Shown here in pieces: positions 39,305-51,378 of a stretch of 64,000 bases of DNA. The DNA is from Chromobacterium haemolyticum DSM 19808 (GTDB taxonomy: Bacteria; Pseudomonadota; Gammaproteobacteria; Burkholderiales; Chromobacteriaceae). The stretch spans positions 1-64,000 of the forward strand of contig NZ_JONK01000018.1 in the NCBI RefSeq assembly GCF_000711885.1, read 5' to 3'. Each line of letters begins with the position of its first letter. Within the stretch, counting starts at the first letter, position 1. The position numbers were made by a program, and so were the translations under genes. The notes below the pieces were generated by a model. The model saw only the letters and a program-made list of their open reading frames with translations. It was not told the DNA's origin and did no database searches.

Positions 39305-39446
39305 CGTTTGCTCACGGAGCTCAGCGCGCCGGCGATACGGCCTTGAAAACGCCTTTGAAGGGCTGAGGAACGGAGATGGGTCTTCCGTTTTTCCCGTCTT
39401 TTTCGCCTTGTTTCGCTGTAACTTGCGAGCTCATGAACAAATTCCT
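39305..39446. repeat. interspersed 3'-flank repeat, copy D (diverged)
   Basis: About 142 bp in the same orientation as copy C: GCGCGCCGGCGATACGGCCTTGAAAACGCC at the left end by position 39325-39352, TTTTTCGCCTTGTTTCGCTGTAA in the middle, and GAGCTCATGAACAAATTC at the right end. Terminal repeats are degenerate. It reaches the gloB stop codon and fills the gap between mltD and gloB, which otherwise holds only the AT-rich mltD upstream region. Confidence 0.65.
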
Positions 39447-40201
39447 CAGAAGCGATTTTTCCACTCGCGCAACGCGGCAAAGACTTCGACAACCTCATCA
39501 AGAGCTTGGCCGCTCCAGTGCGCGGCGGACTGGCGCACCGCAGGCTCATGCGCGCGCAGGAAAGGGTTGCTGGCGCGCTCCAGACTGATGGTGGAGGGCA
39601 GGGTGGGCAGATTCTGTTCGCGCAGCTTCAGGTCCCGGCTCATGCGGATGGCTAGCACAGGATTGCCAGGCTCCACCGTCAGCGCGAAGCGTAGATTGGC
39701 CAAGGTGTACTCATGAGCCGGGTAGACCTTGGTGGCGTTCGGCAGCGCGGCTAGCTTGGCCAGCGAATCATGCATTTGCCGCGGCGTGCCTTCGAACAGT
39801 CGGCCACAGCCGGCGCCGAACAGTGTATCGCCGCAAAACAGCGCGTCGTCGATCACATAGGCCAGGTGGTTCAGCGTGTGGCCCGGAACTTCCAGCACCA
39901 AGGCCGCGCCGAAGGAGAGCTCGACGCGAGCTCCGTCCATCACCGGGCGAGAGACCAAGGCGATGTCGGCCGGGCCGTAGACGGGGGCGTCCGGCCAGCG
40001 CGCGGACAGCTCGGCCACGCCGCCGATATGGTCGGCGTGGTGGTGGGTGAGCAGAACGGCTTCCAGCTGAAGCCCTTCCCGCTCAAGGAAGGAGAAGACC
40101 GGCGCGGCCTCGCCCGGGTCCACCACGACAGCGCGGCCGCTGTGATGCAAAACCCAGATATAATTATCATTAAATGAATTTATTGCTTTAATTTCAATCA
40201 C
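39446..40201 (-). CDS. gloB: hydroxyacylglutathione hydrolase (glyoxalase II), 5' end supplied by the integrated element
   Basis: Hydrolyses S-lactoylglutathione in methylglyoxal detoxification. The 251-residue metallo-beta-lactamase-fold enzyme has THHHADHIGG (52-61), the GHTLNHLAYV and CGDTLF metal ligands and a C-terminal glutathione-binding domain. The first 11-12 codons (VIEIKAINSFN) are very AT-rich, start at GTG and precede the conserved DNYIW. The original start, MPAKFTVSPVGAFT before DNYI, lies 10.4 kb away at 50583-50639. The element therefore cut gloB and restored the frame with its own sequence. TGGGG 5 bases before the GTG is the only ribosome site seen; an in-frame stop directly precedes the GTG. 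Confidence 0.9.
   Translation of the reverse strand: MIEIKAINSFNDNYIWVLHHSGRAVVVDPGEAAPVFSFLEREGLQLEAVLLTHHHADHIGGVAELSARWPDAPVYGPADIALVSRPVMDGARVELSFGAALVLEVPGHTLNHLAYVIDDALFCGDTLFGAGCGRLFEGTPRQMHDSLAKLAALPNATKVYPAHEYTLANLRFALTVEPGNPVLAIRMSRDLKLREQNLPTLPSTISLERASNPFLRAHEPAVRQSAAHWSGQALDEVVEVFAALREWKNRF
40155..40169. other. attachment site (left), att core in gloB
   Basis: CAGATATAATTATCA. The same core with one change (CAGATATAATTGTCA) lies at 50584-50598. It encodes the DNYI-W part of gloB on the minus strand. It marks the left boundary of the integrated element. Confidence 0.85.
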
Positions 40202-40328
40202 TTAAACCCCAGGCGGATGAGCAATGTACTACGATTGATAATACTATTTTGAACACCGTTTCCGGCAGTAAAGGCAGCTCTTAGACTGTACCAAAACAGA
40301 TACATAGCTGCCTATTTATTAATCAATT

Positions 40329-40901
40329 CTACACTTTCAGATACCGACAAATGGTTGCTTTACTCAGCCCGGTTTCCTCTTCAATCTGCCGCAACGTCTT
40401 GCCATCAGCCTTCAATGCCTTGATCACATCAGGGCTTCCCGCCTTGCCACGTCCCAAACTGGTCTTGCCTCTGTGGGTCTTGCCGGTTACCTCCAGTGCC
40501 TTGCGTGCTGCATCCCTGCCAGCCTCGCAACGGGCGTTAATGCGCTGACGCTCCATGTCAGCCACTTGAGCCAGCACAGTAAGAATCAGGTCGCCTACGC
40601 CTTTGGAGATGATGCCAAGGCCGTGAATATGTACCTCTACGCCTTTGTCTCTCAGGGCTTGAACGGTTAGCTGCACGTCAATCGCATCACGTCCAAGACG
40701 GTCAACAGCGTATACGTGCAGAGAGTCACCTTCCCGTATGAAGTCCAGTAGAGCGCGAAAGCCTTGGCGGTTTTTTGCCACGACTGAACCAGATACACCT
40801 TCATCCATGAATTCCCGTTCGAAGTTGCCTTCAAGAGCGTTGCGCTGGGCCTCGACGGATTGATCAAGGGTAGATACGCGGTAGTAAGCGATACGTGCCA
40901 T
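40329..40901 (-). CDS. serine recombinase (resolvase/invertase family)
   Basis: A 190-residue small serine recombinase. The N-terminal catalytic domain has MARIAYYRVSTLDQS with nucleophile Ser10, DEGVSG, VYAVDRLGRD and LTVLAQVADMERQRI; the C-terminal helix-turn-helix is KTLRQIEEETGLSKATICRYL. Such enzymes resolve cointegrates or invert DNA. The gene's upstream region holds repeated TGTCTCA/TGAGACA motifs consistent with its own res site. The start at 40901 is chosen for AGGGAAAC upstream and the family N-terminus. Confidence 0.93.
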   Translation of the reverse strand: MARIAYYRVSTLDQSVEAQRNALEGNFEREFMDEGVSGSVVAKNRQGFRALLDFIREGDSLHVYAVDRLGRDAIDVQLTVQALRDKGVEVHIHGLGIISKGVGDLILTVLAQVADMERQRINARCEAGRDAARKALEVTGKTHRGKTSLGRGKAGSPDVIKALKADGKTLRQIEEETGLSKATICRYLKV

Positions 40902-40932
40902 GCTGGTGTTTCCCTGCAGTCTCAGTAGATAG

Positions 40933-41033
40933 TGTCTCACAAAATAGCACTCTCACAATAGACATTCAATATCTTTTGAGACAACGAGTGGGGGTATTAT
41001 GGCTAGTCTCATAACCTACAAGTTTTGAGACAG
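40933..41033. promoter_or_regulatory. res-like recombination region
   Basis: Four related half-sites: TGTCTCACAAAA (40933-40944), TTTTGAGACA (40974-40983), TAGTCTCATAAC (41004-41015) and GTTTTGAGACAG (41022-41033). The last two form an inverted pair spanning 30 bp, the size of a resolvase crossover site. It lies immediately upstream of the serine recombinase gene. Confidence 0.6.
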
Positions 41034-41260
41034 GCGTAAAGGCTGAACAACCGGTGCTGGAGTGGGTACAAGACAGGCTTCTGGCGGTGACACTGCACTT
41101 GGCTGCCTTCCAGCCCTATGAGGCCATGCAGCGGCCCTGTATTGCAGGAAAGGCCTGCGACGATCCTTCCAGACGGCCCATGGGGGGGCGCAGGCTTCAA
41201 GATATCTCAGATGCCCATTTAAATTTTTGCCATACTTATAGACTGTTCGCATTATGATAA

Positions 41261-41773
41261 ATGGATAATTTCAGCTTCAAGCTCATGCATCACTGGATGG
41301 CTCTTCAAGGCGATACGCCTGATAACGGCTCTCCTTATCATTTCCTTAATCGCCCTCATACTTACCCCTACAGCCACACTTGCACTTCGGCCTTGGAGTG
41401 TTTTGATATTCCTGCGCACTGCCGCTCTCGCTACTTGGCGGTCGAGCACATCCCAATCTTCTTGCGGGACATGAACTATTATGGGGTGAGCAACCTCGAT
41501 CTTAGACGGCTCAGAAAAGCTGAAAAGCACTGCCGCAAGTCCCATGAGATATCCCCCAGAGCAATTATCCTTCTCCTTCCCGACGAAGACCCTGAAATAG
41601 CCCTCCAAAGCTTCAATGCCCCGATCGACAAAAGGCTAATAGAAGAGCCTGAAGCACCGATACTGGTGTTTGCCGGCTATACAGTCTCCGAAAAGGGCCG
41701 GGATGTCTTAGCACGCCACAGAAGCCGGAAGGTTTTACCTGAAACTATCTCCCACCTTCACGCTAACTCGTGA
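41261..41773 (+). CDS. hypothetical protein
   Basis: A 170-residue soluble protein of no recognised family, rich in His, Arg and Leu (NLDLRRLRKAEKHCRKSHEIS, then ILLLPDEDPEIALQSF and APILVFAGYTVSEKGRDVLARH). No clear ribosome site. The opposite strand (41252-41608) is also open, but starts only at TTG; the plus-strand frame is longer with an ATG start, so I prefer it. It lies between the recombinase and a second small gene of the element. Confidence 0.45.
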   Translation: MDNFSFKLMHHWMALQGDTPDNGSPYHFLNRPHTYPYSHTCTSALECFDIPAHCRSRYLAVEHIPIFLRDMNYYGVSNLDLRRLRKAEKHCRKSHEISPRAIILLLPDEDPEIALQSFNAPIDKRLIEEPEAPILVFAGYTVSEKGRDVLARHRSRKVLPETISHLHANS

Positions 41774-41864
41774 TAATTTATTGAAACAGTAAGAATGGGA
41801 ACTTATCAATAGGTACTCACCCCCACTTCTTAGCGCACCAACTACGGCCCCACGGAGGTCAGTC

Positions 41865-42101
41865 ATGGAAGACCGAAAAACGTATCAAGATGGCATTCGC
41901 TATAGCGTAACCAGGCAGGGCGAGTACATCGGCTACATTCTGGATGGCGTTCATTTATCCTCAGATGGGAAGGCTATCGGAGAGATTCATAATGAATGGT
42001 ACCTAGTAGACGGTAAGCGGGTGGGAGGCATAGTAACAGGAGACACAATCCTTCGAAGGGACGGTGCACACTACAAGGTCGTCAAGCAGGAAATCGCCTA
42101 G
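41865..42101 (+). CDS. small hypothetical protein
   Basis: A 78-residue acidic/basic mixed protein built of short strands (YSVTRQGEYIGYILDGVHLSS, GEIHNEWYLVDGKRVGGIVTGDTIL). A strong GGAGGTC lies 5 bases before the ATG, supporting expression. The family is unknown; the strand pattern suggests a small beta-barrel. Confidence 0.6.
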   Translation: MEDRKTYQDGIRYSVTRQGEYIGYILDGVHLSSDGKAIGEIHNEWYLVDGKRVGGIVTGDTILRRDGAHYKVVKQEIA

Positions 42102-42508
42102 CCTTCACGACTTAGACGTCCTAACCGCCTTGCTCCGCCAAGCTGCCACAACGGCCTGCATGGCATTCACACCCCAGAGACCGTGCCCACACCGCCACAA
42201 AAACCAGAGCAGTCTTGGATTGCTAGGCTCAGCCACTTATCGCTCTTACCGCCATGTCAAGCAGACCTCACGGCTTCAAGCGCTCGTCAGGTATCGCGCT
42301 GGTGCTTGTGGGAAATCTGTAGATTAGACCGCTAGGCCCGTCGTTAAAACGATTAGAGATACCCAGCATTCAATAATTACACAATACTTTTAAAATCTAT
42401 TATAACACCTGACTAAGCGAAACCATCTAAAAAGCTTTGAAGCATATAAATAAAACCGCCCCACCTTAATGGCGATTAAGATAAACTGACCAACCAAGGA
42501 GAAATTTT
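42102..42508. other. 407-bp gap upstream of secreted-protein gene
   Basis: No gene is supported. The right half is AT-rich and has a promoter-like pair, TTACAC (42377-42382) and TATAAC (42401-42406), 18 bases apart, about 100 bases before the secreted-protein gene. Confidence 0.45.
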
Positions 42509-43564
42509 GTGCGAAAAGTATATTTTATCTTCCTGAGTTTCCTTATCCTCATATCGACGACAGCCAGAGGAGAAAATGTCGGCGCAAATGAAAACTTCTC
42601 AATAAATTCGAATCCCTTCAGGGCGACAGCAAAGATTAACGGCTCCACCATCGATTCACTTTCACTCACTCCTGGCCAAGTCGCAGCAATAGGAATAGGA
42701 GCTGGCCAGACGCTTGAGTTGAATTCGGATGTGTCGCCTGTGAGTTGGAATCCGACCTCCACCACCATCTCACCGCTTGTTATTTCAAACACCCCTTCAT
42801 CATGGAAGGCCACCATCCCCTCTTCCGCAGTCGGAAATATTACTTTCCATATTACTTCCACACAGAACGCAACAAAAACTGCAACACTCACCGTTTACAT
42901 AGCTCCGCCCACCAAAGTCTCTGACCACGGGGCCGTTGAATTTATTGGGTTTGATACCTCTGCAACGCAAATAGTATCACTGCAGACAACATTAACAGTC
43001 CCCATCAAACCGCCCGCATCTGGCACACTCTTTCTATGGCCCGGAATTCAACCTTTGGGGGCTAACTATCTACCAATCGACAATGGCGTTTTACAACCAG
43101 TCTTAACCTGGGGGCCATCTTGCGCACCAGGAAAGCAACCACGTACTTATTCAACATGGTGGGTTTCGGCGCAATATGTGAACACAGTTGGAAAGCATCC
43201 AGGGTATACGGACTGCCACGGCGGGCCAATCATGCCTGTTAACGTGGGAGACCAGTTGAAAATGTCGATGATCCTGCGCGGAACAACGTGGCATCAGACA
43301 GTCACAGACATCCAAACAGGCCGCTCCGTAAGCTTTAAAATTGACATGAAAAAGCAGGCTCAAAACCGTGCAATTTTTATAATCGAAGGATGGTCACAGC
43401 AATCAATTGAAGATGTTATATTTACAAACACAACGATCACCTTCACCCCCGCAGCCCCTCTGAGTTGTATTGCAAAAAATCAAGGGAGAAATGTCACAGT
43501 ATCAATCCCACGCATATCTTCTGACGGGACACAATGTTCAATCTCTAAAATCATACTTCGATAA
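42509..43564 (+). CDS. secreted protein of unknown function
   Basis: A 351-residue exported protein. Signal peptide: RKVYFIFLSFLILISTTARG. An N-terminal Ser/Thr-rich beta region (about 25-130, Ig-like in texture) is followed by a domain (about 140-310) with LFLWPGIQPLGANY, GVLQPVLTWGPSCAPGKQ, YSTWWVSAQYVN and GDQLKMSMIL, which recalls secreted fungal and G1-peptidase-like beta-sandwich proteins. Cys residues are paired late in the protein. It starts at GTG with AAGGAG 7 bases upstream. It is AT-rich compared with the host. Catalytic residues cannot be assigned; a lectin or inhibitor role is equally possible. Confidence 0.75.
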   Translation: MRKVYFIFLSFLILISTTARGENVGANENFSINSNPFRATAKINGSTIDSLSLTPGQVAAIGIGAGQTLELNSDVSPVSWNPTSTTISPLVISNTPSSWKATIPSSAVGNITFHITSTQNATKTATLTVYIAPPTKVSDHGAVEFIGFDTSATQIVSLQTTLTVPIKPPASGTLFLWPGIQPLGANYLPIDNGVLQPVLTWGPSCAPGKQPRTYSTWWVSAQYVNTVGKHPGYTDCHGGPIMPVNVGDQLKMSMILRGTTWHQTVTDIQTGRSVSFKIDMKKQAQNRAIFIIEGWSQQSIEDVIFTNTTITFTPAAPLSCIAKNQGRNVTVSIPRISSDGTQCSISKIILR

Positions 43565-44086
43565 GGCTCAATTGCAGCCCCCCCCCCTAAGAGAGTAGCG
43601 GCACAACCAAGCCCATTTCCATTCTAGAAAATTCTAACTAATTTTCATTGACTTGAGCGATATTAATTCAACCAAGAAGTCTCGCCACACTTGAGCAAGA
43701 AGACCAATCAATGCCTTTTAAATCTTGAAATGGAAAATATCCATGTGCAAGCGAAAATATACATGAACAGGAAACAACAATCAGCAACCTGCTTTCCATT
43801 TTCATACGGTACATTTAAGAATATTCCCAAGAGACAAGCTCAGCCCGTTTATGGCCTAATGTTGATGCGGTGATTTCTCCATCTTCGCAGGTCTTCAGCC
43901 TGTCTTAATGACTTAGCGGTCACTGAGACAGGCCTTTTTTTGGCCTTCGAAATACAAGTGTTGATTACCTCAGCCGCATCCAAGGCCAGTCAAGACTCCA
44001 CAGCTTCAAGTAGTTGCTTTCATGAGCCATCAGCCAATGAAACTCTTCAACTTTCATCTGGCAATCTGAACCTTCGGGTTCTTCTA
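43565..44086. other. 522-bp gap
   Basis: AT-rich. It holds a terminator at 43898-43941. A 60-codon frame at 43691-43873 has no ribosome site and is not called. Nothing else is supported. Confidence 0.45.
43898..43941 (+). terminator. rho-independent terminator in the element
   Basis: GCCTGTCT pairs with AGACAGGC around a 20-base loop that can itself fold (TGAC/GTCA), followed by CTTTTTTT. It is 330 bases past the secreted-protein gene, so it may end a longer leader or an unseen small RNA. Confidence 0.7.
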
Positions 44087-44707
44087 TTAGGCCCCATCGG
44101 CAATATCCTTCCACGTCAGATTGGCACGATTCCGCCGCAGCTTTGCATTTAGTTTCTGGCTTGCATTCGGTGCACCGCCTTTCATGCTACTTAGCGCCTC
44201 TGCACGCGCCTCCTGCTCTTCGGCATGGACTTGTCCTCCTGCACGCTCGACAGCTTGTACGGCTGCGATTGTGAGGTCTTCAATATGGACCTCCTTCACC
44301 TTGTCAGATACAGCAATGCCGTAAGTCTGAACTTCATCGAACTTGCGGATTACTTCAAGGTGAAGCTGCGGAGAAATCCACATGGCGTATGCATACACCA
44401 ACTCCTTGGATACGTATGTACCACCGTTGCGGCCTCGAATGGTGCAGACAGCTTTATTACGGGATTTTCCCGTATTTTCCAACTCACGGATCAACGCAGC
44501 CGTTTCAGGCCGGCGCATGTACTCGTTAATCTCCAAGGTGCGGGAAGATCGTGCATCACCAATAGTCGCAGCCTTCTGCAAATCATTCAGACAGTAGCGT
44601 CCTTCCGCATCTTGACGGATATCGAAGCTACCCAAGGACATGGACGGGCTGGAAGCAGTATTCTGGTTGGCGCAGCTAGCGCTGCTGGCGTTCTTGGTAT
44701 TAGTCAT
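44087..44707 (-). CDS. KilA-N domain protein (1)
   Basis: A 206-residue protein with a central KilA-N DNA-binding domain: GRYCLNDLQKAATIG, SRTLEINEYMRRPET, GTYVSKELVYAYAMWISPQLHLEVIRKFDE (about residues 30-130). The C-terminal 70 residues are charged and helical (VERAGGQVHAEEQEARAEALSSMKGG), ending LRRNRANLTWKDI. KilA-N domains are common in phages and their satellites, often in regulators or host-takeover proteins. AAGGAAATAGACCAA precedes the ATG. Role unknown. Confidence 0.85.
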   Translation of the reverse strand: MTNTKNASSASCANQNTASSPSMSLGSFDIRQDAEGRYCLNDLQKAATIGDARSSRTLEINEYMRRPETAALIRELENTGKSRNKAVCTIRGRNGGTYVSKELVYAYAMWISPQLHLEVIRKFDEVQTYGIAVSDKVKEVHIEDLTIAAVQAVERAGGQVHAEEQEARAEALSSMKGGAPNASQKLNAKLRRNRANLTWKDIADGA

Positions 44708-45282
44708 TTGGTCTATTTCCTTTTAAGTTTGTCGCCTCAAGAGTCCCATCGCTTTCATGCCCTCACGTGCCCTAAACCAGTAGGCAGCATGAAGCGCACT
44801 CGAAGCGACAAGCTTGAATGGACGTGAGTTTGTGATGGTGTTTGGCCCTAGGATGGCCTTTAACGCGCTTGGGAGGCGCAGAAGGTGTAAACAGTGGCGT
44901 AAGGTCTAAAAGAGACGCTAGCGGCCTTGCAGGGCGCTTTTGCGGGATACCAGTTGATGCCAGTATCTGTTTGATGATTATTCTTCACCAGCTTCTAAGA
45001 GCTGATAGGCGCATTGGAGCTTGGCAGGGATTGAAGGAGTGATCTTGACACCATCTATCTATCTGCTTTCAGCTCTTAAAGGCTTCTTGAATGAATAGTT
45101 CAAAGTTTGGTCCAAGATGATTCATCAAACCAACTGGCATCCTTATTCAAGCATCTGTCCCAGAGCCTTGAAGTCCCTGTAAGAAATAATCTTGAATCGG
45201 GTATAAATATTTTGCATCAAGCCTTGATTGGCAGTCAAATGTCTGAAGCTCTCTCGAAGACCCTTTATATAGGTGATCGAAA
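44708..45282. other. 575-bp gap
   Basis: Between two minus-strand genes of the element. Open frames on the plus strand (44842-45042, 45107-45391) lack ribosome sites and are not supported. No repeats or terminators stand out. Confidence 0.4.
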
Positions 45283-45627
45283 CTACCCTTCACCGTTCTG
45301 TAGCATCGCATTGCGGATAGCTCTGGAAGCAACTCGCAGAGCCTGTGCCAGTTTTCGGCAATGGCTTTCAGATTGCTCCGCCACTTCTTGAACGGCCTTA
45401 ACGGTGATTTCAGGCAGGGAGGAGAGCAGGTAGTAAATCTTCGATACGCTTAACGCTCTGGTATTGCCGCCAAAGTCCAATCGTGCAACTCCGGTAAGAA
45501 TATCGTCCACGGCGTTTCTCATCGACTGCGGCACGCCTTCATCGTCCATGTAATGTTTGAAGGTCAGGAAGTCGCAGAGATAAAACTGTATGGTCTGGTT
45601 ATCGTGGGTTGTGATCGGTCTTGCCAT
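45283..45627 (-). CDS. hypothetical protein
   Basis: A 114-residue, mostly helical soluble protein (MARPITTHDNQTIQFYLCDF..., then SVSKIYYLLSSLPEITVKAVQEVAEQSESHC). AAGGAG lies 12 bases before the ATG. No family is recognised. Upstream DNA holds GTGTGTG repeats that may be its operator. Confidence 0.55.
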   Translation of the reverse strand: MARPITTHDNQTIQFYLCDFLTFKHYMDDEGVPQSMRNAVDDILTGVARLDFGGNTRALSVSKIYYLLSSLPEITVKAVQEVAEQSESHCRKLAQALRVASRAIRNAMLQNGEG

Positions 45628-46169
45628 TGGTAATGATTTTCTCCTTATAGGTTAATGCGCGTATCGACAACTACGCAGCGGGCCATGGGACGTGTATAAG
45701 AACCTTCGGGCATAGAAAGCCCCCCCACACACAGCCTCCCAGCCGTGGACGATAGGGAGGTATCTAAGCGTCCCTTCTCTAGTGTGTGTAATTAGATTTA
45801 TGGTGTGTGTTATTAAACTCAGGACTCTGATAGCCTTTTCCTATTTTGACGGCAGGCGAACTCCATGAATCAGAAATGGCCGCAATGGATGTGCATTCTT
45901 GAAGGTGCTATGCCGGCTTTTCAGATGCCACAAAGTCGGTCAGATGCGGCCTGAAAGCAGCTCGAAGCAAACGGAAAAATGGGACGGAGGTGACACGCCA
46001 ACGGAAAGGGCTGGAAGTCGCTTCCCCTTCTATTAGTCAGTGTTATTGATGCAGGCCTCTACGAAGTCCGTAGCGAGGCGCTGACACCCCCGAATAGGGT
46101 TGATGCCTTTATCGCCGTAAGCGCGACGGAGAGGGCTGCAAGGGGGAATAGCCGGGAATGATGATTGGA
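45628..46169. other. 542-bp gap with GTGTGTG repeats
   Basis: Direct repeats GTGTGTGTAATTA (45782-45794) and GTGTGTGTTATTA (45803-45815) lie 21 bases apart, and an inverted CACACAC lies near 45727-45733. No gene is supported. The remainder shows no clear structure. Confidence 0.5.
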
Positions 46170-46781
46170 TTAAAGCGGGAGGGTTGATGCCGTACCTGCG
46201 GCTTTCGCGTCCCTGTCCTGCGCAATGTCCTTCCAGCGCTTGACCTCTACACGGGCCTCTTCCAGCTCTTCGCGCAGTGCCATGTTCGCGGCGTAGGTGG
46301 AAGGGTTTCGAATGGCGTTGGAGATCGCTGGCACTTGCAGGACTTCATGCGGGGTGCTGACGTTGATGTTGATGGTTGTAGAGCCTTGGAGCAGGCTGTC
46401 GATAACCGAGTCGCACCAGACGGCAAACTTGACATCCAGCCAGCGGGCGAAGAACACGGCAAGTTTCGGATGCGCCCATGTACCTTGGGCCTTGCCCTTG
46501 CCGACTACTACATCCGTCAGAACTTTTTTAGCTCCCGTGAATTCACGGGGGCTTAAATTCAGCGACTCAGCAAGGGCCATTACATAATCTTGCGTCTGGT
46601 CATACCGCCAGAATTCATCCAAGCGCTTCCCGTAAGCCTTCGCAGCCTTCGTCATGTTGAAGTAACCATCTTTGCGGAACTCGAAGGCCACGCCGTTGAA
46701 GGACTTGGCGAGGACTTGCGGGGCCTGCTGCGCCCCACCTTGAGCGGGGATTTCGAAATACTTGGCGAGCATTTCAGCCAT
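46170..46781 (-). CDS. KilA-N domain protein (2)
   Basis: A 203-residue protein with a KilA-N domain in the first 120 residues: FEFRKDGYFNMTKAAKAYGKRLDEFWR, then GTWAHPKLAVFFARWLDVKFAVWCDSVIDSLL. The C-terminal half has a helical segment (REELEEARVEVKRWKDIAQDRDAK). Its first 50 residues closely match the truncated copy at 48558-48800, also at DNA level, which implies duplication within the element. Confidence 0.85.
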   Translation of the reverse strand: MAEMLAKYFEIPAQGGAQQAPQVLAKSFNGVAFEFRKDGYFNMTKAAKAYGKRLDEFWRYDQTQDYVMALAESLNLSPREFTGAKKVLTDVVVGKGKAQGTWAHPKLAVFFARWLDVKFAVWCDSVIDSLLQGSTTININVSTPHEVLQVPAISNAIRNPSTYAANMALREELEEARVEVKRWKDIAQDRDAKAAGTASTLPL

Positions 46782-47037
46782 GATTTACTTGTTCTTCGGG
46801 TCTTGGAAGGTGTTGGCGAGCATATTTCCAGAAAAAGAATTGGCCATCACGGCCACGCCACTGAGTCACCCGAATAGACACATCTCTCAGCAGAAAGGAG
46901 CTATAAAATCTGACGGGAAATCGGAACCCAATTGAAGGCCGATTCCTGTAGCGACATTCTACGAATGAGAAGAGAACACAAATAGAAGCCCGCCTTCCAT
47001 GCAATCTTGCAATATCACCTAACAAGAATTAATAAGG

Positions 47038-48117
47038 CTAGTACGCCGGCAAATTCCAATTTTGATAAGCCGAGCCATCACATTTTAGCAAACTAACGGA
47101 TTGGCCTACCCGGCTGGCACTCAGACACAGACCACTCTTGATACTCTGTATCACACTACCACTTCGCTTCCACTTGGACACGCCACTACAACTCCCAATG
47201 CCAACGGCACCAAGATGCTCTTCCAAGCAATAATTATCTTGCAGCTGCAATGTACTATCTTTCGCAAATACCCATGCTTGGTTATTACCACTGTGACAAG
47301 CATAGGTAATCACCGAGGCCCCTTCCTCAACTCCCCCGCTAGAGTCTAGACACTTTCCATTAGCCACCACTCCCCCCCTAGTACTATTACCCACGCCGTT
47401 CTCCTGAACGCTACGCTGGCTATAAGTTGTAACCTTGGAAAAGGCAGAGCAGGAGTCGCTAACTGAGGTACCACTTATTCGAGCCATTACTAGCTTTCCA
47501 CCATTAGTACCTGATGGCACTCCGAATGTCACCTTACTATACGGCTGCCCCATACAAGTAGAGCGATCACTGTTCCACTCGAAATATTCTGTCCAATTAA
47601 CCATATTGTGTGGCGCTATCTTGCTAGAAACCGTTTTAATACTTCCCAACTTAAATGACACCCCATTCGTCATATCCGTAACGGTCACACCCAACCAGTT
47701 GCCTGCCTCATAGGCAACATGGAAGCGATAGCTATGCCCCTGAACCCAGTCAACATGAATGCGGCAGCTTCGTCCCGTACCTTCGCCGGAAAAGGTAACG
47801 CACTGGCTACCAGGACTGCCAGCCTTGGCTTCTGTGGTATTCCAAGCAGAAAATAGAAAAGTTCGCTTGCTGCCGCCATTGCTCTGCATGCCTGTATAGG
47901 CACCATCAGGTGACCCAATCAACTCAAACTGGTTTGCCCAATATACATTAGCCGCATAGCCCGGGTCTCGATCCACAGTAATAGTGAAATCGACAGCATC
48001 CATCCCAACCGACACAGCGGCTGGAAACTCATAATTAGTATAGGTGCCTGGTGTTTTCCCAAGTGCACAAGCCAGTGGGGAAATCGCGAGCAGAAGAATC
48101 ATGACTTTGGCATTCAT
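47038..48117 (-). CDS. secreted DUF3472-like/ricin B-type lectin fusion
   Basis: A 359-residue exported protein: signal peptide MNAKVMILLLAISPLACA; a beta-rich domain (about 25-230) with VYWANQFELIGSPDGAYTGMQS and CRIHVDWVQGHSYRFHVAYEAG, resembling DUF3472; and a C-terminal beta-trefoil of ricin B type (about 245-359) with GKCLDSSGG, NNQAWVF and YQNWNLPAY QxW-like repeats. It probably binds sugars outside the cell. TTGAGGTC 8 bases before the ATG at 48117 sets the start over an upstream Met. The IS remnant begins 65 bases upstream. Confidence 0.82.
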   Translation of the reverse strand: MNAKVMILLLAISPLACALGKTPGTYTNYEFPAAVSVGMDAVDFTITVDRDPGYAANVYWANQFELIGSPDGAYTGMQSNGGSKRTFLFSAWNTTEAKAGSPGSQCVTFSGEGTGRSCRIHVDWVQGHSYRFHVAYEAGNWLGVTVTDMTNGVSFKLGSIKTVSSKIAPHNMVNWTEYFEWNSDRSTCMGQPYSKVTFGVPSGTNGGKLVMARISGTSVSDSCSAFSKVTTYSQRSVQENGVGNSTRGGVVANGKCLDSSGGVEEGASVITYACHSGNNQAWVFAKDSTLQLQDNYCLEEHLGAVGIGSCSGVSKWKRSGSVIQSIKSGLCLSASRVGQSVSLLKCDGSAYQNWNLPAY

Positions 48118-48181
48118 AAAAATGACCTCAACCAATATGGCTTATTGATCCAACTTGCAACAAGCTGTTGACTATGTCAAT

Positions 48182-48580
48182 GGCTTTGTTGCATAACCCC
48201 ATCGCTCCCTGCGGTATGCTAAGGCGATGAACACCGCAGCACCCCAGAACAAGAAGCCCAAGCAACGCTACGCAACCACCAACTGGCATGAGTACGATGC
48301 GGCCCTGACCGCACGCGGATCGCTGCTGGTCTGGCTCGATAAAGACATGCAGTGGCTGGCCGAACCTACCGGCAACACCGGCCGACCAGCCAAATATACC
48401 GATGCTGCCATCCAGTTTTGTCTGAGCATTAAATGCCTGTTCAATCTGCCATTGCGACAGAGCCTGGGCATGGTGCAAAGCCTGCTGCAATTGGCAGGGC
48501 TCGACTGGCCGGTGCCGGATCACTCCACCGTATGCCGTCGCTAGCGTACCTTACGGGTCAAGATTGGCTATCGCCGCCCT
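48182..48580 (+). mobile_element. IS5-family insertion sequence remnant (5' part)
   Basis: The left end GGCTTTGTTGCATAACCCC is the typical terminal repeat of IS5-family (IS903-like) elements, followed by the first third of the transposase. The homology stops near 48578, where truncated KilA-N coding sequence begins on the other strand. The right end of the IS is missing, so a deletion joined the two. Confidence 0.8.
48227..48544 (+). pseudogene. truncated IS5-family transposase
   Basis: 105 codons match the N-terminal part of IS5-type transposases (NWHEYDAALTARGSL, GRPAKYTDAAIQFCL, FNLPLRQSLGMVQSLL, WPVPDHSTVCRR). The frame then meets TAG where CAG is expected, continues in frame as RTLRVKIGYRR, and is cut off near 48578. 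No catalytic DDE region remains. Confidence 0.85.
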
Positions 48581-48800
48581 CGCCCATGTGATACCCGTGC
48601 TTGGTTTGGATGGTTGGGAGATGAGGGGAAATCCCCGCATCACTCAGCGCCCACGCGTACTCCGTGGTTGATGCATTCTTCAGGAACTCCCGAACATCCT
48701 TCCCGTAAGCCTTAGCCGCCTTGGTCATGTTGAAGTAACCATCCTCGCGGAACTCGAAGGCCATGCCGTTGAACTCTTTGCCTATTACGTGGGACGTCAA
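48558..48800 (-). pseudogene. KilA-N domain protein (3), truncated
   Basis: 80 codons with GKEFNGMAFEFREDGYFNMTKAAKAYGK, nearly identical to KilA-N protein 2, then a divergent continuation up to GYHMGEGG. The last few codons come from the IS remnant. The start overlaps the integrase stop (ATGA), so it lies in the integrase transcript. It may still make a short peptide, but the family domain is incomplete. Confidence 0.75.
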
Positions 48801-50443
48801 GGCAGCACAGCTATAACAGCATCTGACGCCTCTCTAAGTACCTTGAATGCCGTGTCATAGCCTTGGCCGTACATCATCGCTACCTTGTTGCTCTTGCTGC
48901 TATGGCCTGTCAGGTAGTCGTTTACAGAGTCTTGAATGCCAGCAATACGCGCTTTGAGCTTCCACGTATGGCGAAGACTGTGCATCGTGACGCGGCTATC
49001 AATGCTGGCTTTTCTCTTCGCTTCGCTGAACTCCTTGCGTAGCCATTCGATACGCCTTGCTGGAGTTTGCGTTCTGTCCGCATCTGTCTTGGCGCTCCGA
49101 TGCACTACGCCACGGCCTTTGGTAGGTCTTCCTTTTTCCAAGTCATCAAAGATGAATGGATACCCACGTTCCATCTGCTTCCTGAAAAACTCAGTCAATG
49201 GGCCTCTAGGTACTGGTACGGTTCTTACCGAGGATTGATTCTTGACTGAACGTCCCTCTGTATCTGTGACCCGAACAAATAGCCCATGGTCGCCACTGGT
49301 ATCTCCTAGTACGTCACAGGGTTTTAGCTGTGCGGCTTCCGCTGAGCGCATACCCGTAGCGAGCAGGAACTCGAAGAACTCAGCGTGTGCCTTGATGATT
49401 GGTAACTTTCGCATCTGCTCAATCTCGGCATCTGTAGCGGCTCTGCGTCCTTCCTCTGACCTGTCGTGGAGTGGCAATCCTTGCTGCTTCCTGATTCCTT
49501 TTTCTTCATCAGCCGTTACCGAAATCTTGAAGGGCTTGGCAATGATGGATTCTTCAAAGGCTATACCAATCAGCATATTCATAATGGCTGCATGCTGGCT
49601 GTTCCATGTGCTGATCTTCATTCCTTTGCCCAGCCTGAACGCCTTGTAGCCTGCAAGCGTTTCCTTGTCGAAATCGTCAGGCAGCATCGCTGGCCGCTTC
49701 AGATACCGCTCATAGCCGTCAACAGCAGCCTTGTACACGCCTTGCCTTGTTGGTGTTGGGGTCTTGGCATTGATAAGGGCCGCTAGAAGGCTCTGTAACG
49801 GTCTTTGCTTACTGGTGGGGGTCGGCGCTTCCTTCGCCTCTTCCTGCGCAACAAGAGCCGTTGCGGCGTCCTCACGCGCCATCTGCTGTACTGTCTGTGC
49901 AGCAAGGGCTTTGGCGAGCTTGTACGAATGATCGTCACCAATCCAGATGCCTGTGTCCCGCAGGAAGGAGATGAAGCACTCTTCTTGATGGTCTGTGACG
50001 ACTTCCAGTTGCAAGTCTCTTGCGTCCTCGTACCCAGCATGGTCTCGCGAGCCTTGGACGACTATGCATGTCTCGCCAGCATCTGGAACCATGTCTTCGA
50101 TGTACAGCCGGTACTTACTCGCAAGGGCTTTGGCTTCTAGAAGCGTCAGGCTGTTCAGTAGGGCCATCTGCGCCGGCAGCGTACCCTTTTGCGTCCGGGC
50201 GTCTTGAGCGCCAGTGCTCAAGTCCTTTCTGATGCGCTCAAAAGTAGCCGTGTACTCGCTGAGTAAGGCTCCCGCCTTTGCTGCTGCCTCGGCGCGTGAA
50301 TGTGTTCCAAGACTCTTGCGAATGATGGTGGGCAGGTTGCCGCGTTGCTCAAGAGGAAGGGCTTGCAGGTCTTTGGGCAGTCTAAGCTGGAAGTAATACA
50401 CGCCTTCCGTATTGGTGTAGGTGTAGGCGGGCGCTTGGGCCAT
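48797..50443 (-). CDS. tyrosine site-specific integrase
   Basis: A 548-residue integrase that most likely inserts and excises the element at the gloB att core. The N-terminal part (YTNTEGVYYFQLRLPKDL) is the usual arm-type binding and SAM-like region; the core-binding domain lies near 250-340. The C-terminal catalytic domain carries Arg in LATGMRSAEAAQL, His488 and Arg491 in HSLRHTW, His514 in TGHSS, and Tyr525 in MMYGQGY. It lies 140 bases from the right att core. The start at 50443 follows the family N-terminus. Confidence 0.93.
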   Translation of the reverse strand: MAQAPAYTYTNTEGVYYFQLRLPKDLQALPLEQRGNLPTIIRKSLGTHSRAEAAAKAGALLSEYTATFERIRKDLSTGAQDARTQKGTLPAQMALLNSLTLLEAKALASKYRLYIEDMVPDAGETCIVVQGSRDHAGYEDARDLQLEVVTDHQEECFISFLRDTGIWIGDDHSYKLAKALAAQTVQQMAREDAATALVAQEEAKEAPTPTSKQRPLQSLLAALINAKTPTPTRQGVYKAAVDGYERYLKRPAMLPDDFDKETLAGYKAFRLGKGMKISTWNSQHAAIMNMLIGIAFEESIIAKPFKISVTADEEKGIRKQQGLPLHDRSEEGRRAATDAEIEQMRKLPIIKAHAEFFEFLLATGMRSAEAAQLKPCDVLGDTSGDHGLFVRVTDTEGRSVKNQSSVRTVPVPRGPLTEFFRKQMERGYPFIFDDLEKGRPTKGRGVVHRSAKTDADRTQTPARRIEWLRKEFSEAKRKASIDSRVTMHSLRHTWKLKARIAGIQDSVNDYLTGHSSKSNKVAMMYGQGYDTAFKVLREASDAVIAVLP

Positions 50444-50582
50444 TCGTGGTATCCTGTGCAGCTGCAAAAGCAGCACTGTAACACCAAATGTATCACTATT
50501 TGTACTACGGTCTAAGGCTCTGAAAGCCTTGTTTGGTAAGGATTTCAGTGTTTACAAGGGTTTGGGTGGACTACTGTTTGGT

Positions 50583-50639
50583 TCAGATATAATTGTCAGT
50601 GAAGGCCCCTACCGGGCTGACGGTGAATTTGGCTGGCAT
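50583..50639 (-). pseudogene. gloB: stranded original 5' end of gloB
   Basis: Minus-strand codons read MPAKFTVSPVGAFTDNYI then TGA. This is the normal glyoxalase II N-terminus up to the conserved DNYIW; the stop appears because the TGG of Trp is replaced by element sequence. It is GC-rich like the host, unlike the AT-rich start now used by the intact gene. It lies divergent from the methyltransferase gene, where the ancestral gloB promoter should be. Confidence 0.85.
50584..50598. other. attachment site (right)
   Basis: CAGATATAATTGTCA, matching 40155-40169 with one change. It marks the right boundary of the integrated element. Confidence 0.85.
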
Positions 50640-50652
50640 AAGGCTTCTCTCA

Positions 50653-51378
50653 ATGAAGAATTCGTTTAGCGACTGGCTGAGCTCCAGCGAATTGGGATGT
50701 TATCTGCTGGAGCGGGAGCAGGCTTATTTCGATCGCGCCGTCGCCGACGTGTTCGGCTTCCATGCGGTGCAGTTGGGATTGCCGGAAGTCGACTTCCTGC
50801 GCGCCAACCGCATTCCCTGGCAGTGCCGCGTCGCCGATTCCGGACCGGCTCAGATCCTGTGCGATCCGGAGCAACTGCCGTTCGAGAGCCGCAGCCTGGA
50901 CCTGTTGGTGATGCCGCATGTGCTGGATTTTACCACCGTGCCGCATCAGGTACTGCGGGAAGCCGAGCGCGTGCTGATGCCGGAGGGCAGGCTGATCCTC
51001 ACCGGCTTCAATCCGGTGTCGCTATGGGGCGTGCGCCGGCTGGTCCAGGGGCGCGAAAACGCGCCGTGGAGCGGCAACTTTCTGTCTTTGGTGCGCATCA
51101 AGGACTGGCTGACCCTGCTGGAACTGGAGCCCGCGAGCGGGGGCTTCATGGGCTACGCGCCGCCGTTTTCCCGCTGCGACTGGGTGCAACGCTTCCGCTT
51201 CATGGAGCGGGCCGGGGACCGCTGGTGGCCATTGGCCGCCGGCGTGTACGGCATTGAGGCGATCAAACGTCAGCGCGGCATGCGCTTGATCCTGCCCAAT
51301 TGGAAGCAGGCCAAGGCCAAAACCGGTCTGGCGGTGGCCGCCGGCAACGAGCGTCATCACAGTCACAGGGAACCATGA
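50653..51378 (+). CDS. SAM-dependent methyltransferase
   Basis: A 241-residue class I methyltransferase-like protein (Methyltransf_11 type). The central region CDPEQLPFESRSLDLLVMPHVLDF and the EAERVLMPEGRLILTGFNP strand match the family, but the glycine-rich motif I is weak. A position before rnhA and divergent from gloB is common in this bacterial group. Substrate unknown. The start at 50653 matches the conserved MKNSFSDWL beginning. Confidence 0.8.
   Translation: MKNSFSDWLSSSELGCYLLEREQAYFDRAVADVFGFHAVQLGLPEVDFLRANRIPWQCRVADSGPAQILCDPEQLPFESRSLDLLVMPHVLDFTTVPHQVLREAERVLMPEGRLILTGFNPVSLWGVRRLVQGRENAPWSGNFLSLVRIKDWLTLLELEPASGGFMGYAPPFSRCDWVQRFRFMERAGDRWWPLAAGVYGIEAIKRQRGMRLILPNWKQAKAKTGLAVAAGNERHHSHREP

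What the first reader, a model, noticed from the sequence alone, without database searches (positions are those of the whole stretch)
40155..50639. A 10.4-kb element has integrated inside the gloB coding sequence and replaces its 5' end in frame
At the left end, intact gloB starts at GTG with AT-rich codons VIEIKAINSFN before DNYIW. At the right end the minus strand reads MPAKFTVSPVGAFTDNYI then TGA: the normal GC-rich glyoxalase II start, cut at exactly the same conserved point. The 15-bp core CAGATATAATTRTCA (40155-40169, 50584-50598) is shared, and a tyrosine integrase lies next to the right core. The first 12 codons of the current gene are roughly 20% G+C against about 60% for the stranded piece. 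Integrases that target a protein gene and carry a replacement end are known, but the 5' end of gloB as a target is, to my knowledge, not a standard site. After integration gloB must use the element's promoter and translation start, so the element may set the host's methylglyoxal tolerance.
Basis: partly seen in the sequence, partly recalled or inferred. Interest (0 to 1): 0.88.

Follow-up and report, generated by a model that had tools for sequence, protein, structure and literature searches.

The report
Mobile element replaces gloB gene start
A 10.4-kb mobile element sits inside a housekeeping detoxification gene, has cut off that gene's own beginning and carries a substitute for it, and its two nearest relatives found sit at the beginnings of other housekeeping genes in the same way.

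Summary
A 10.4-kb element (cores 40155-40169, 50584-50598) lies in gloB; the native start is stranded at 50583-50639, and 11 AT-rich element-borne codons replace it in frame. Joining the flanks gives a site matching an uninterrupted relative at 170 of 172 bases. All 59 of 60 family relatives with a readable gloB start are uninterrupted there. No second gloB was found. The supplied start resembles GloB starts (P=0.00035 against shuffles; 6 of 11 residues as in PA1813).

[quoted passage not shown] New are the target and a small integrase clade (99/100): its three members found sit at starts of three genes, gloB, ftsK and a thioesterase, whereas 15 of 29 more distant integrase loci contain a tRNA or tmRNA gene. 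Three further same-genus genomes have unrelated DNA up to the ftsK ATG and lack the native leader motif; one is a clear relic of such an element. Promoter use, excision and any effect on methylglyoxal tolerance are untested.

The parts
39446..40201 (-). gloB (glyoxalase II), intact chimeric gene; native from codon 12 on
   Evidence: TIGR03413 322.4 bits; dN/dS against four relatives 0.10-0.16
40169..40201 (-). element-supplied start: GTG plus 10 codons (MIEIKAINSFN), 18% G+C
   Evidence: similarity test; predicted strand at residues 3-8; aligned from residue 1 to PA1813
40155..40169 (.). left attachment core, joined to the working gloB body
   Evidence: empty-site reconstruction
40329..40940 (-). 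serine resolvase/invertase at the end opposite the integrase, 127 bases upstream of gloB and on its strand
   Evidence: PF00239 2.3e-27; related resolvases in the other two elements (42% and 35% identity)
42509..43564 (+). cargo of unknown role, weak CBM_56 match
   Evidence: E=0.0043, below the Pfam cut-off
44087..44707 (-). KilA-N domain protein (phage antirepressor-like)
   Evidence: PF04383 1.8e-15
45283..45627 (-). 114-aa protein shared with the ftsK element of G022 (68% identity over 112 aa)
46170..46781 (-). second KilA-N domain protein
   Evidence: PF04383 3.3e-20
47038..48135 (-). DUF3472 + ricin-type beta-trefoil lectin domain protein (cargo)
48227..48544 (+). transposase N-terminal fragment
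   Evidence: phrog_2262 3.5e-35; DDE_Tnp_1_5 1e-30
48797..50443 (-). tyrosine integrase, 548 aa from ATG (a GTG 33 bases upstream is possible); catalytic signature assigned from recall: R366, H488/R491, H514, Y525
50478..50496 (-). pair of GTGATAC-like repeats 12 bases apart, candidate integrase arm sites
50584..50598 (.). right attachment core, joined to the stranded native 5' end
50583..50639 (-). stranded native gloB start, 18 codons then TGA
   Evidence: same start contiguous in relatives
50653..51378 (+). divergent methyltransferase gene (native right flank)
   Evidence: PF08241 1.4e-9

Best explanation
An integrative element recombined its attP with an 11-15 bp site at codons DNYIW of gloB by its own tyrosine integrase. 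Shown by sequence: the native first 18 codons are stranded at the far end and run into a stop; the element carries an in-frame, GloB-like 5' end with a GTG start and a plausible ribosome-binding site; gloB is therefore kept whole by substitution. Inferred: the integrase did it; transcription of the chimeric gloB starts in, or reads through from, the element (possibly from the resolvase gene 127 bases upstream); excision would restore the native gene. The integrase belongs to a small clade whose three members found sit at gene starts.
For: Unique core pair. Joined flanks = empty site, 170 of 172 to G015. 59 of 59 readable relatives uninterrupted. No second gloB. The supplied 11 residues score 14.0 against native starts, shuffle mean -8.4, P=0.00035; 0 of 4728 stop-free random sequences of the same bases score as well. 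Predicted strand at residues 3-8, mean pLDDT 89.4. Alignment to PA1813 from residue 1, 6 of 11 supplied residues identical. Ribosome-site energy -5.4 kcal/mol against -2.9 for the native start. dN/dS 0.10-0.16. Same anatomy in two relatives: G022, integrase 43-47% identical, 12.3 kb at the ftsK start with 20-bp cores, one mismatch; G683, 6.5 kb at a thioesterase start with an exact 20-bp core, G556 of the same genus showing the empty site. Clade support 99/100.
Against: The supplied start scores below every one of the 29 native starts (lowest native 18.6, natives scored against a set that includes themselves). No consensus promoter upstream of the new start, with 0.5 expected by chance in this scan. 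No reads, RNA or excision data. The window genome is a 63-contig draft. The candidate arm repeat is imperfect in the window (GTGATAC/GTGTTAC) and absent from its resolvase side, and the loose pattern is hardly enriched genome-wide (23 places against 16 for the reversed control in 61 genomes). The element is inverted relative to its target compared with G022 and G683: there the integrase end abuts the working gene, here the stranded piece.
Confidence: 0.93

Rival explanations
1. The AT-rich start is not attP cargo: a rearrangement broke gloB, and a frame that happens to be open now serves as a start.
For: Only 11 codons are supplied, part of the similarity is the invariant F at codon 10, and the score is below that of every native start.
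Against: 0 of 4728 random stop-free sequences of the same composition score as well; precise cores at both ends; empty site restored at 170 of 172; supplied residues align to PA1813; two relatives with the same anatomy.
Confidence: 0.03
2. The chimeric gloB is silent or useless: the element disrupted gloB functionally and the cell tolerates it.
For: No promoter consensus was found; expression cannot be tested here.
Against: Full-length frame, whole family profile matched, dN/dS 0.10-0.16, like uninterrupted relatives (0.07-0.20), and a favourable ribosome site. A recent insertion would give the same dN/dS, so that is weak evidence.
Confidence: 0.12
3. It is an ordinary element of the dusA or SXT sort at a new address, with no clade-specific habit; ftsK and the thioesterase are coincidences.
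For: Three elements are few; the mechanism equals published cases (PMC8409611, PMC4482086); 14 of 29 distant integrase loci show no RNA gene in the stretch held, and their sites were not worked out.
Against: 3 of 3 members of the supported clade sit at gene starts, whereas 15 of 29 more distant loci contain a tRNA or tmRNA gene. dusA-associated integrases are reported as closest to Rci (PMC4482086 section 12).
Confidence: 0.3

Closest known systems
dusA-associated genomic islands and IMEVchUSA3 (PMC4482086; PMC8409611)
   Same: Tyrosine-integrase element in the 5' end of a protein gene; replaces the 5' end with its own; a replacement first beta strand is described; IMEVchUSA3 was shown by lacZ fusion to give dusA a promoter and N-terminus.
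   Different: Target is gloB, not dusA; integrase with a DUF6538 domain; 10.4 kb with a resolvase and no recognised transfer genes among the ORFs scanned; close relatives hit other genes.
SXT/R391 ICEs in prfC (PMC3715440, PMC4489591 and PMC8409611, passages)
   Different: Different gene; SXT is about 100 kb (abstract of PMC2654960 as shown in the listing); no conjugation gene among the 10 proteins scanned.
DUF6538-type integrases beside tRNA/tmRNA genes in related genomes
   Same: Tyrosine integrases found by the same searches; 8 of 10 scanned carry a DUF6538 match, 7 above the cut-off.
   Different: About 28-41% identity over partial alignments; 9 of the 13 inspected first lie beside tRNA-Leu, -Arg, -Asp, -Ser, -Gly or tmRNA genes.

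Membership tests
5'-end-replacing integrative elements (functional kind: SXT, dusA islands) | Element lies inside the 5' end of a host protein gene between direct-repeat cores | tested here: met
5'-end-replacing integrative elements (functional kind: SXT, dusA islands) | Element supplies an in-frame homologous 5' coding end | tested here: met
5'-end-replacing integrative elements (functional kind: SXT, dusA islands) | Element supplies a promoter | tested here: inconclusive
   0 consensus sites, 0.5 expected in shuffles
5'-end-replacing integrative elements (functional kind: SXT, dusA islands) | Excises as a circle and restores the gene | not testable with these tools
   needs PCR or reads; the empty site is seen only in relatives
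dusA-associated islands | Integration in dusA | tested here: not met
   Target is gloB; PMC4482086 abstract allows rare dusB, dusC and non-dus sites
dusA-associated islands | Integrase closest to the Rci recombinases | not tested
   no dusA-associated integrase was fetched for comparison
SXT/R391 ICE | prfC target and conjugation genes | tested here: not met
   Target gloB; no conjugation gene among the 10 proteins
Complete temperate prophage | Capsid, portal, terminase or tail genes | tested here: not met
   None among the 10 ORFs scanned with PHROGs; small or unscanned ORFs remain

The most novel reading that the evidence does not exclude
A lineage of integrases has moved from tRNA genes to the translation starts of housekeeping genes. 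It changes target gene repeatedly by capturing a new gene's 5' end in its attP, and it can leave permanent promoter replacements behind, even at the division gene ftsK, after the rest of the element has decayed. Stranding the native promoter would make crude deletion of the element costly, which protects it.
Probability: 0.35. Interest if true: 0.72.

Novelty: new variant of a known kind. Interest (0 to 1): 0.52.

Why it matters
It adds gloB, ftsK and a thioesterase gene to the start sites at which integrative elements are found, and shows related integrases at three unlike sequences. The ftsK cases suggest that mobile elements can permanently rewire the leader of a core gene, which can be tested by comparing expression in strains with native and swapped leaders.

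Tried and rejected
Scans of genome contigs and viral contigs with the window integrase, the two-row alignment and (viral only) the G022 integrase found no relative. Plasmid and phage collections gave no match to the window integrase; the G022 integrase gave none in phages and two weak plasmid hits at 27-28% identity, not followed. A degenerate pattern for the supplied gloB start found nothing in viral contigs. The triple GTGATAC pattern hit 17 viral contigs; no ORF of 60 aa or more there matched the integrase profile at E<=10, and several of the repeats lie inside repetitive ORFs by eye, so it was dropped as a probe. PADLOC gave only weak matches. Promoter and terminator scans at both ends were empty. 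Considered and set aside: a second gloB, decay of gloB and a chance open frame.
Full report
Observation. The two cores are the only matches in the genome at up to one mismatch. On the gloB strand the left junction reads element-supplied GTG ATT GAA ATT AAA GCA ATA AAT TCA TTT AAT, then GAT AAT TAT ATC TGG and the gene body. The right junction reads the native ATG CCA GCC ... TTC ACT, then GAC AAT TAT ATC TGA. The mismatch inside the core (T on the element-supplied side, C on the native side) suggests a crossover in AATTATATCTG. Joining the flanks gives a site that matches four uninterrupted relatives at 170, 160, 160 and 159 of 172 bases.

Relatives without the element. All 61 family genomes (own included) had some match to GloB. 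I examined the gloB start in 59 of the 60 relatives: 29 from the loci and 30 fetched. The dropped one, G009, is 61% complete and gave only weak hits. All 59 are contiguous at the site; the 33 bases before DNY have at least 42% G+C, mean 55%, against 18% in the window. The 11-mer AATTATATCTG is identical in 55 of 59. No second gloB was found in the genome.

Is the substitute a real GloB start? The supplied 11 residues, aligned by position to the 29 native starts, score 14.0 (mean BLOSUM62 sum) against a shuffle mean of -8.4 (P=0.00035, 20,000 shuffles). Of 20,000 random sequences with the same bases, 4728 were stop-free and none scored as well. Native starts average 37 and the lowest is 18.6, so the substitute is less like them than any native start. 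The best-matching solved relative, PA1813, aligns from residue 1 (MIQIDALPAFNDNYIW against MIEIKAINSFNDNYIW; 6 of the 11 supplied residues identical), which hints that the attP carries a gloB start from another proteobacterial host (inference). AlphaFold2 with 10 aligned sequences places residues 3-8 in a strand, mean pLDDT 89.4. The body shows dN/dS of 0.10-0.16 against four relatives, while pairs of those relatives show 0.07-0.20; a recent insertion would look the same, so this excludes only old decay. The 20 bases before GTG pair with the anti-Shine-Dalgarno at -5.4 kcal/mol, against -2.9 for the native start. No consensus promoter was found, so transcription is inferred. The resolvase gene ends 127 bases upstream on the same strand and could be read through into gloB.

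The element. It is 50.2% G+C in 61-63% flanks. From the integrase end: a tyrosine integrase with a DUF6538 domain; a KilA-N-like fragment and a transposase fragment; a lectin/DUF3472 protein; KilA-N proteins; a small conserved protein; unidentified ORFs; and a serine resolvase next to the working gloB. No structural phage or conjugation gene was recognised among the ORFs scanned, so how it moves between cells is unknown.

Relatives of the integrase. In 61 family genomes 8 had a match at E<=0.001, own included, and one besides the own hit was strong: G022, 47% identity (46% and 43.5%). Its element, 12.3 kb between cores, starts at the ATG of ftsK (four FtsK domains). ATGCGAYTTTTCAAGCGCAA occurs at both ends, and the native ftsK leader is stranded at the far end. 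The working copy reads TTT where the stranded copy and four close relatives have CTT, so residue 3 of FtsK changed from Leu to Phe. In 399 genomes of the order 10 had a match, own included, one of them a new strong hit, G683. Its 6.5-kb element lies between two exact 20-bp cores (L091:6699 and 13217) covering the ribosome site and start codon of a 4HBT thioesterase gene; G556 of the same genus shows the site uninterrupted. Its integrase is broken into two open pieces. In 369 genomes of the class the best match besides the own ones was partial, E=1.5e-13. All three elements have a serine resolvase near the end opposite the integrase; in G022 one further ORF lies between it and the core, and the G683 copy lacks its first third. 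The integrase-side flanks carry GTGATAC-like repeats 12 bases apart in all three and in the G012 relic. Such a pair occurs in 5-19 of 20,000 block shuffles of each flank, but the motif was chosen after seeing it, and genome-wide the loose pattern is only 23 against 16 reversed-control places. The three exact pairs of that scan lie in the G022 element, at both of its ends.

Clade and target habit. In a 15-row tree the three start-site integrases form one group with 99/100 support (the G683 row is its N-terminal piece). Of the 13 distant integrase loci examined first, 9 have a tRNA or tmRNA gene close to the integrase (tRNA-Leu three times, -Arg, -Asp, -Ser, -Gly, tmRNA twice) and 4 have none. 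Of the 16 others fetched, mostly 3-kb stretches around weaker partial matches, 6 contain a tRNA gene, not always next to the match, and 10 none. So 15 of 29 in all; two further G427 places had no locus. The two start-site loci tested, G022 (L048) and G683 (L091), contain none. Eight of 10 distant integrases scanned have a DUF6538 match, 7 above the cut-off. Most deep branches of the tree are weak, so a switch from tRNA genes to gene starts is inferred.

Lasting leader swaps at ftsK. A motif of the native ftsK leader was sought in 19 genomes of the genus: 15 have it once each, in G022 at the stranded place; G012, G016, G026 and G023 lack it. In G012, G016 and G026 the 45 bases before the ATG have 23-31% mean ungapped identity to 13 native leaders, which share 86% among themselves. 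G023, the least similar full-length ftsK (83%), also scores only 36% ungapped, but keeps a recognisable ACTATAATC, so I read it as diverged rather than swapped; this is a judgement. G012 keeps a clear relic: 225 aligned bases at 76% to the G022 element end, about 23 of them ftsK itself, reaching the first codons of the integrase ORF, but no integrase match at a meaningful E-value. For G016 and G026 the origin from this family is only suggested by a few bases near the ATG. No second core lies within the 20 kb read upstream in any of the three.

Comparison with the literature. [quoted passage not shown] PMC8409611 (passages seen) shows by lacZ fusion that IMEVchUSA3 supplies a promoter and N-terminus to dusA, and states the same of SXT and prfC. 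PMC3715440 and PMC4489591 (passages) name the 5' end of prfC as the SXT/R391 site. So the working principle is known. Searches for gloB with integrase, integration site and genomic island (the first term also matches 'global', so it is not specific and only 15 of 323 papers were listed), hydroxyacylglutathione hydrolase with integrase and attB (0 papers), ftsK with integrase, genomic island and Chromobacterium (0 papers), DUF6538 (0 papers) and glyoxalase II with prophage terms (none of the 6 of 110 listed held 'glyoxalase II') showed me no earlier report, within that open-access library only. The genus name used is my recollection from the gene content; no tool named the genome.

Verdict. The finding is real and correctly read. 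As a mechanism it is a member of a known functional kind; as a lineage, with its new targets, start-site clustering and at least one lasting ftsK leader swap, it is a new variant.

Noticed in passing
L077 (G012), L078 (G016), L079 (G026), next to the ftsK ATG: ftsK leaders of three same-genus genomes are unlike native ones up to the start codon, and the native leader motif was not found in these genomes; G012 keeps a relic of a G022-like element.
   Followed up: partly
L048/L075 (G022), about 2393822-2406116 of contig C1: A 12.3-kb element at the ftsK start with 20-bp cores; FtsK residue 3 is Phe in the working copy and Leu in the stranded copy.
   Followed up: yes
L091:6699-13236 (G683): A 6.5-kb element at the ribosome site and start codon of a thioesterase gene, with a broken integrase; G556 has the empty site.
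   Followed up: yes
G000:C4:119407-120135 (L094): A second, distant DUF6538 integrase of the same genome lies beside a tRNA-Leu gene.
   Followed up: partly
window 40155-40165 and 59 relatives: AATTATATCTG in gloB is identical in 55 of 59 relatives, using AAT and TAT codons; the rest of gloB in 29 of them uses AAC (84 of 148) and TAC (80 of 128) more often.
   Followed up: partly
window 50583-50639: The stranded native gloB start reads towards the integrase gene, so the old gloB promoter may now drive the integrase.
   Followed up: no
window 47038-48135: Cargo protein with DUF3472 and a ricin-type lectin domain.
   Followed up: no
G044:C3:2229957-2230699: gloB of this relative has an in-frame TAG and gives two separate matches.
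   Followed up: no
L078 (G016): A RecF/RecN/SMC-like gene lies upstream of ftsK in place of anmK, suggesting a rearrangement at the same spot.
   Followed up: no
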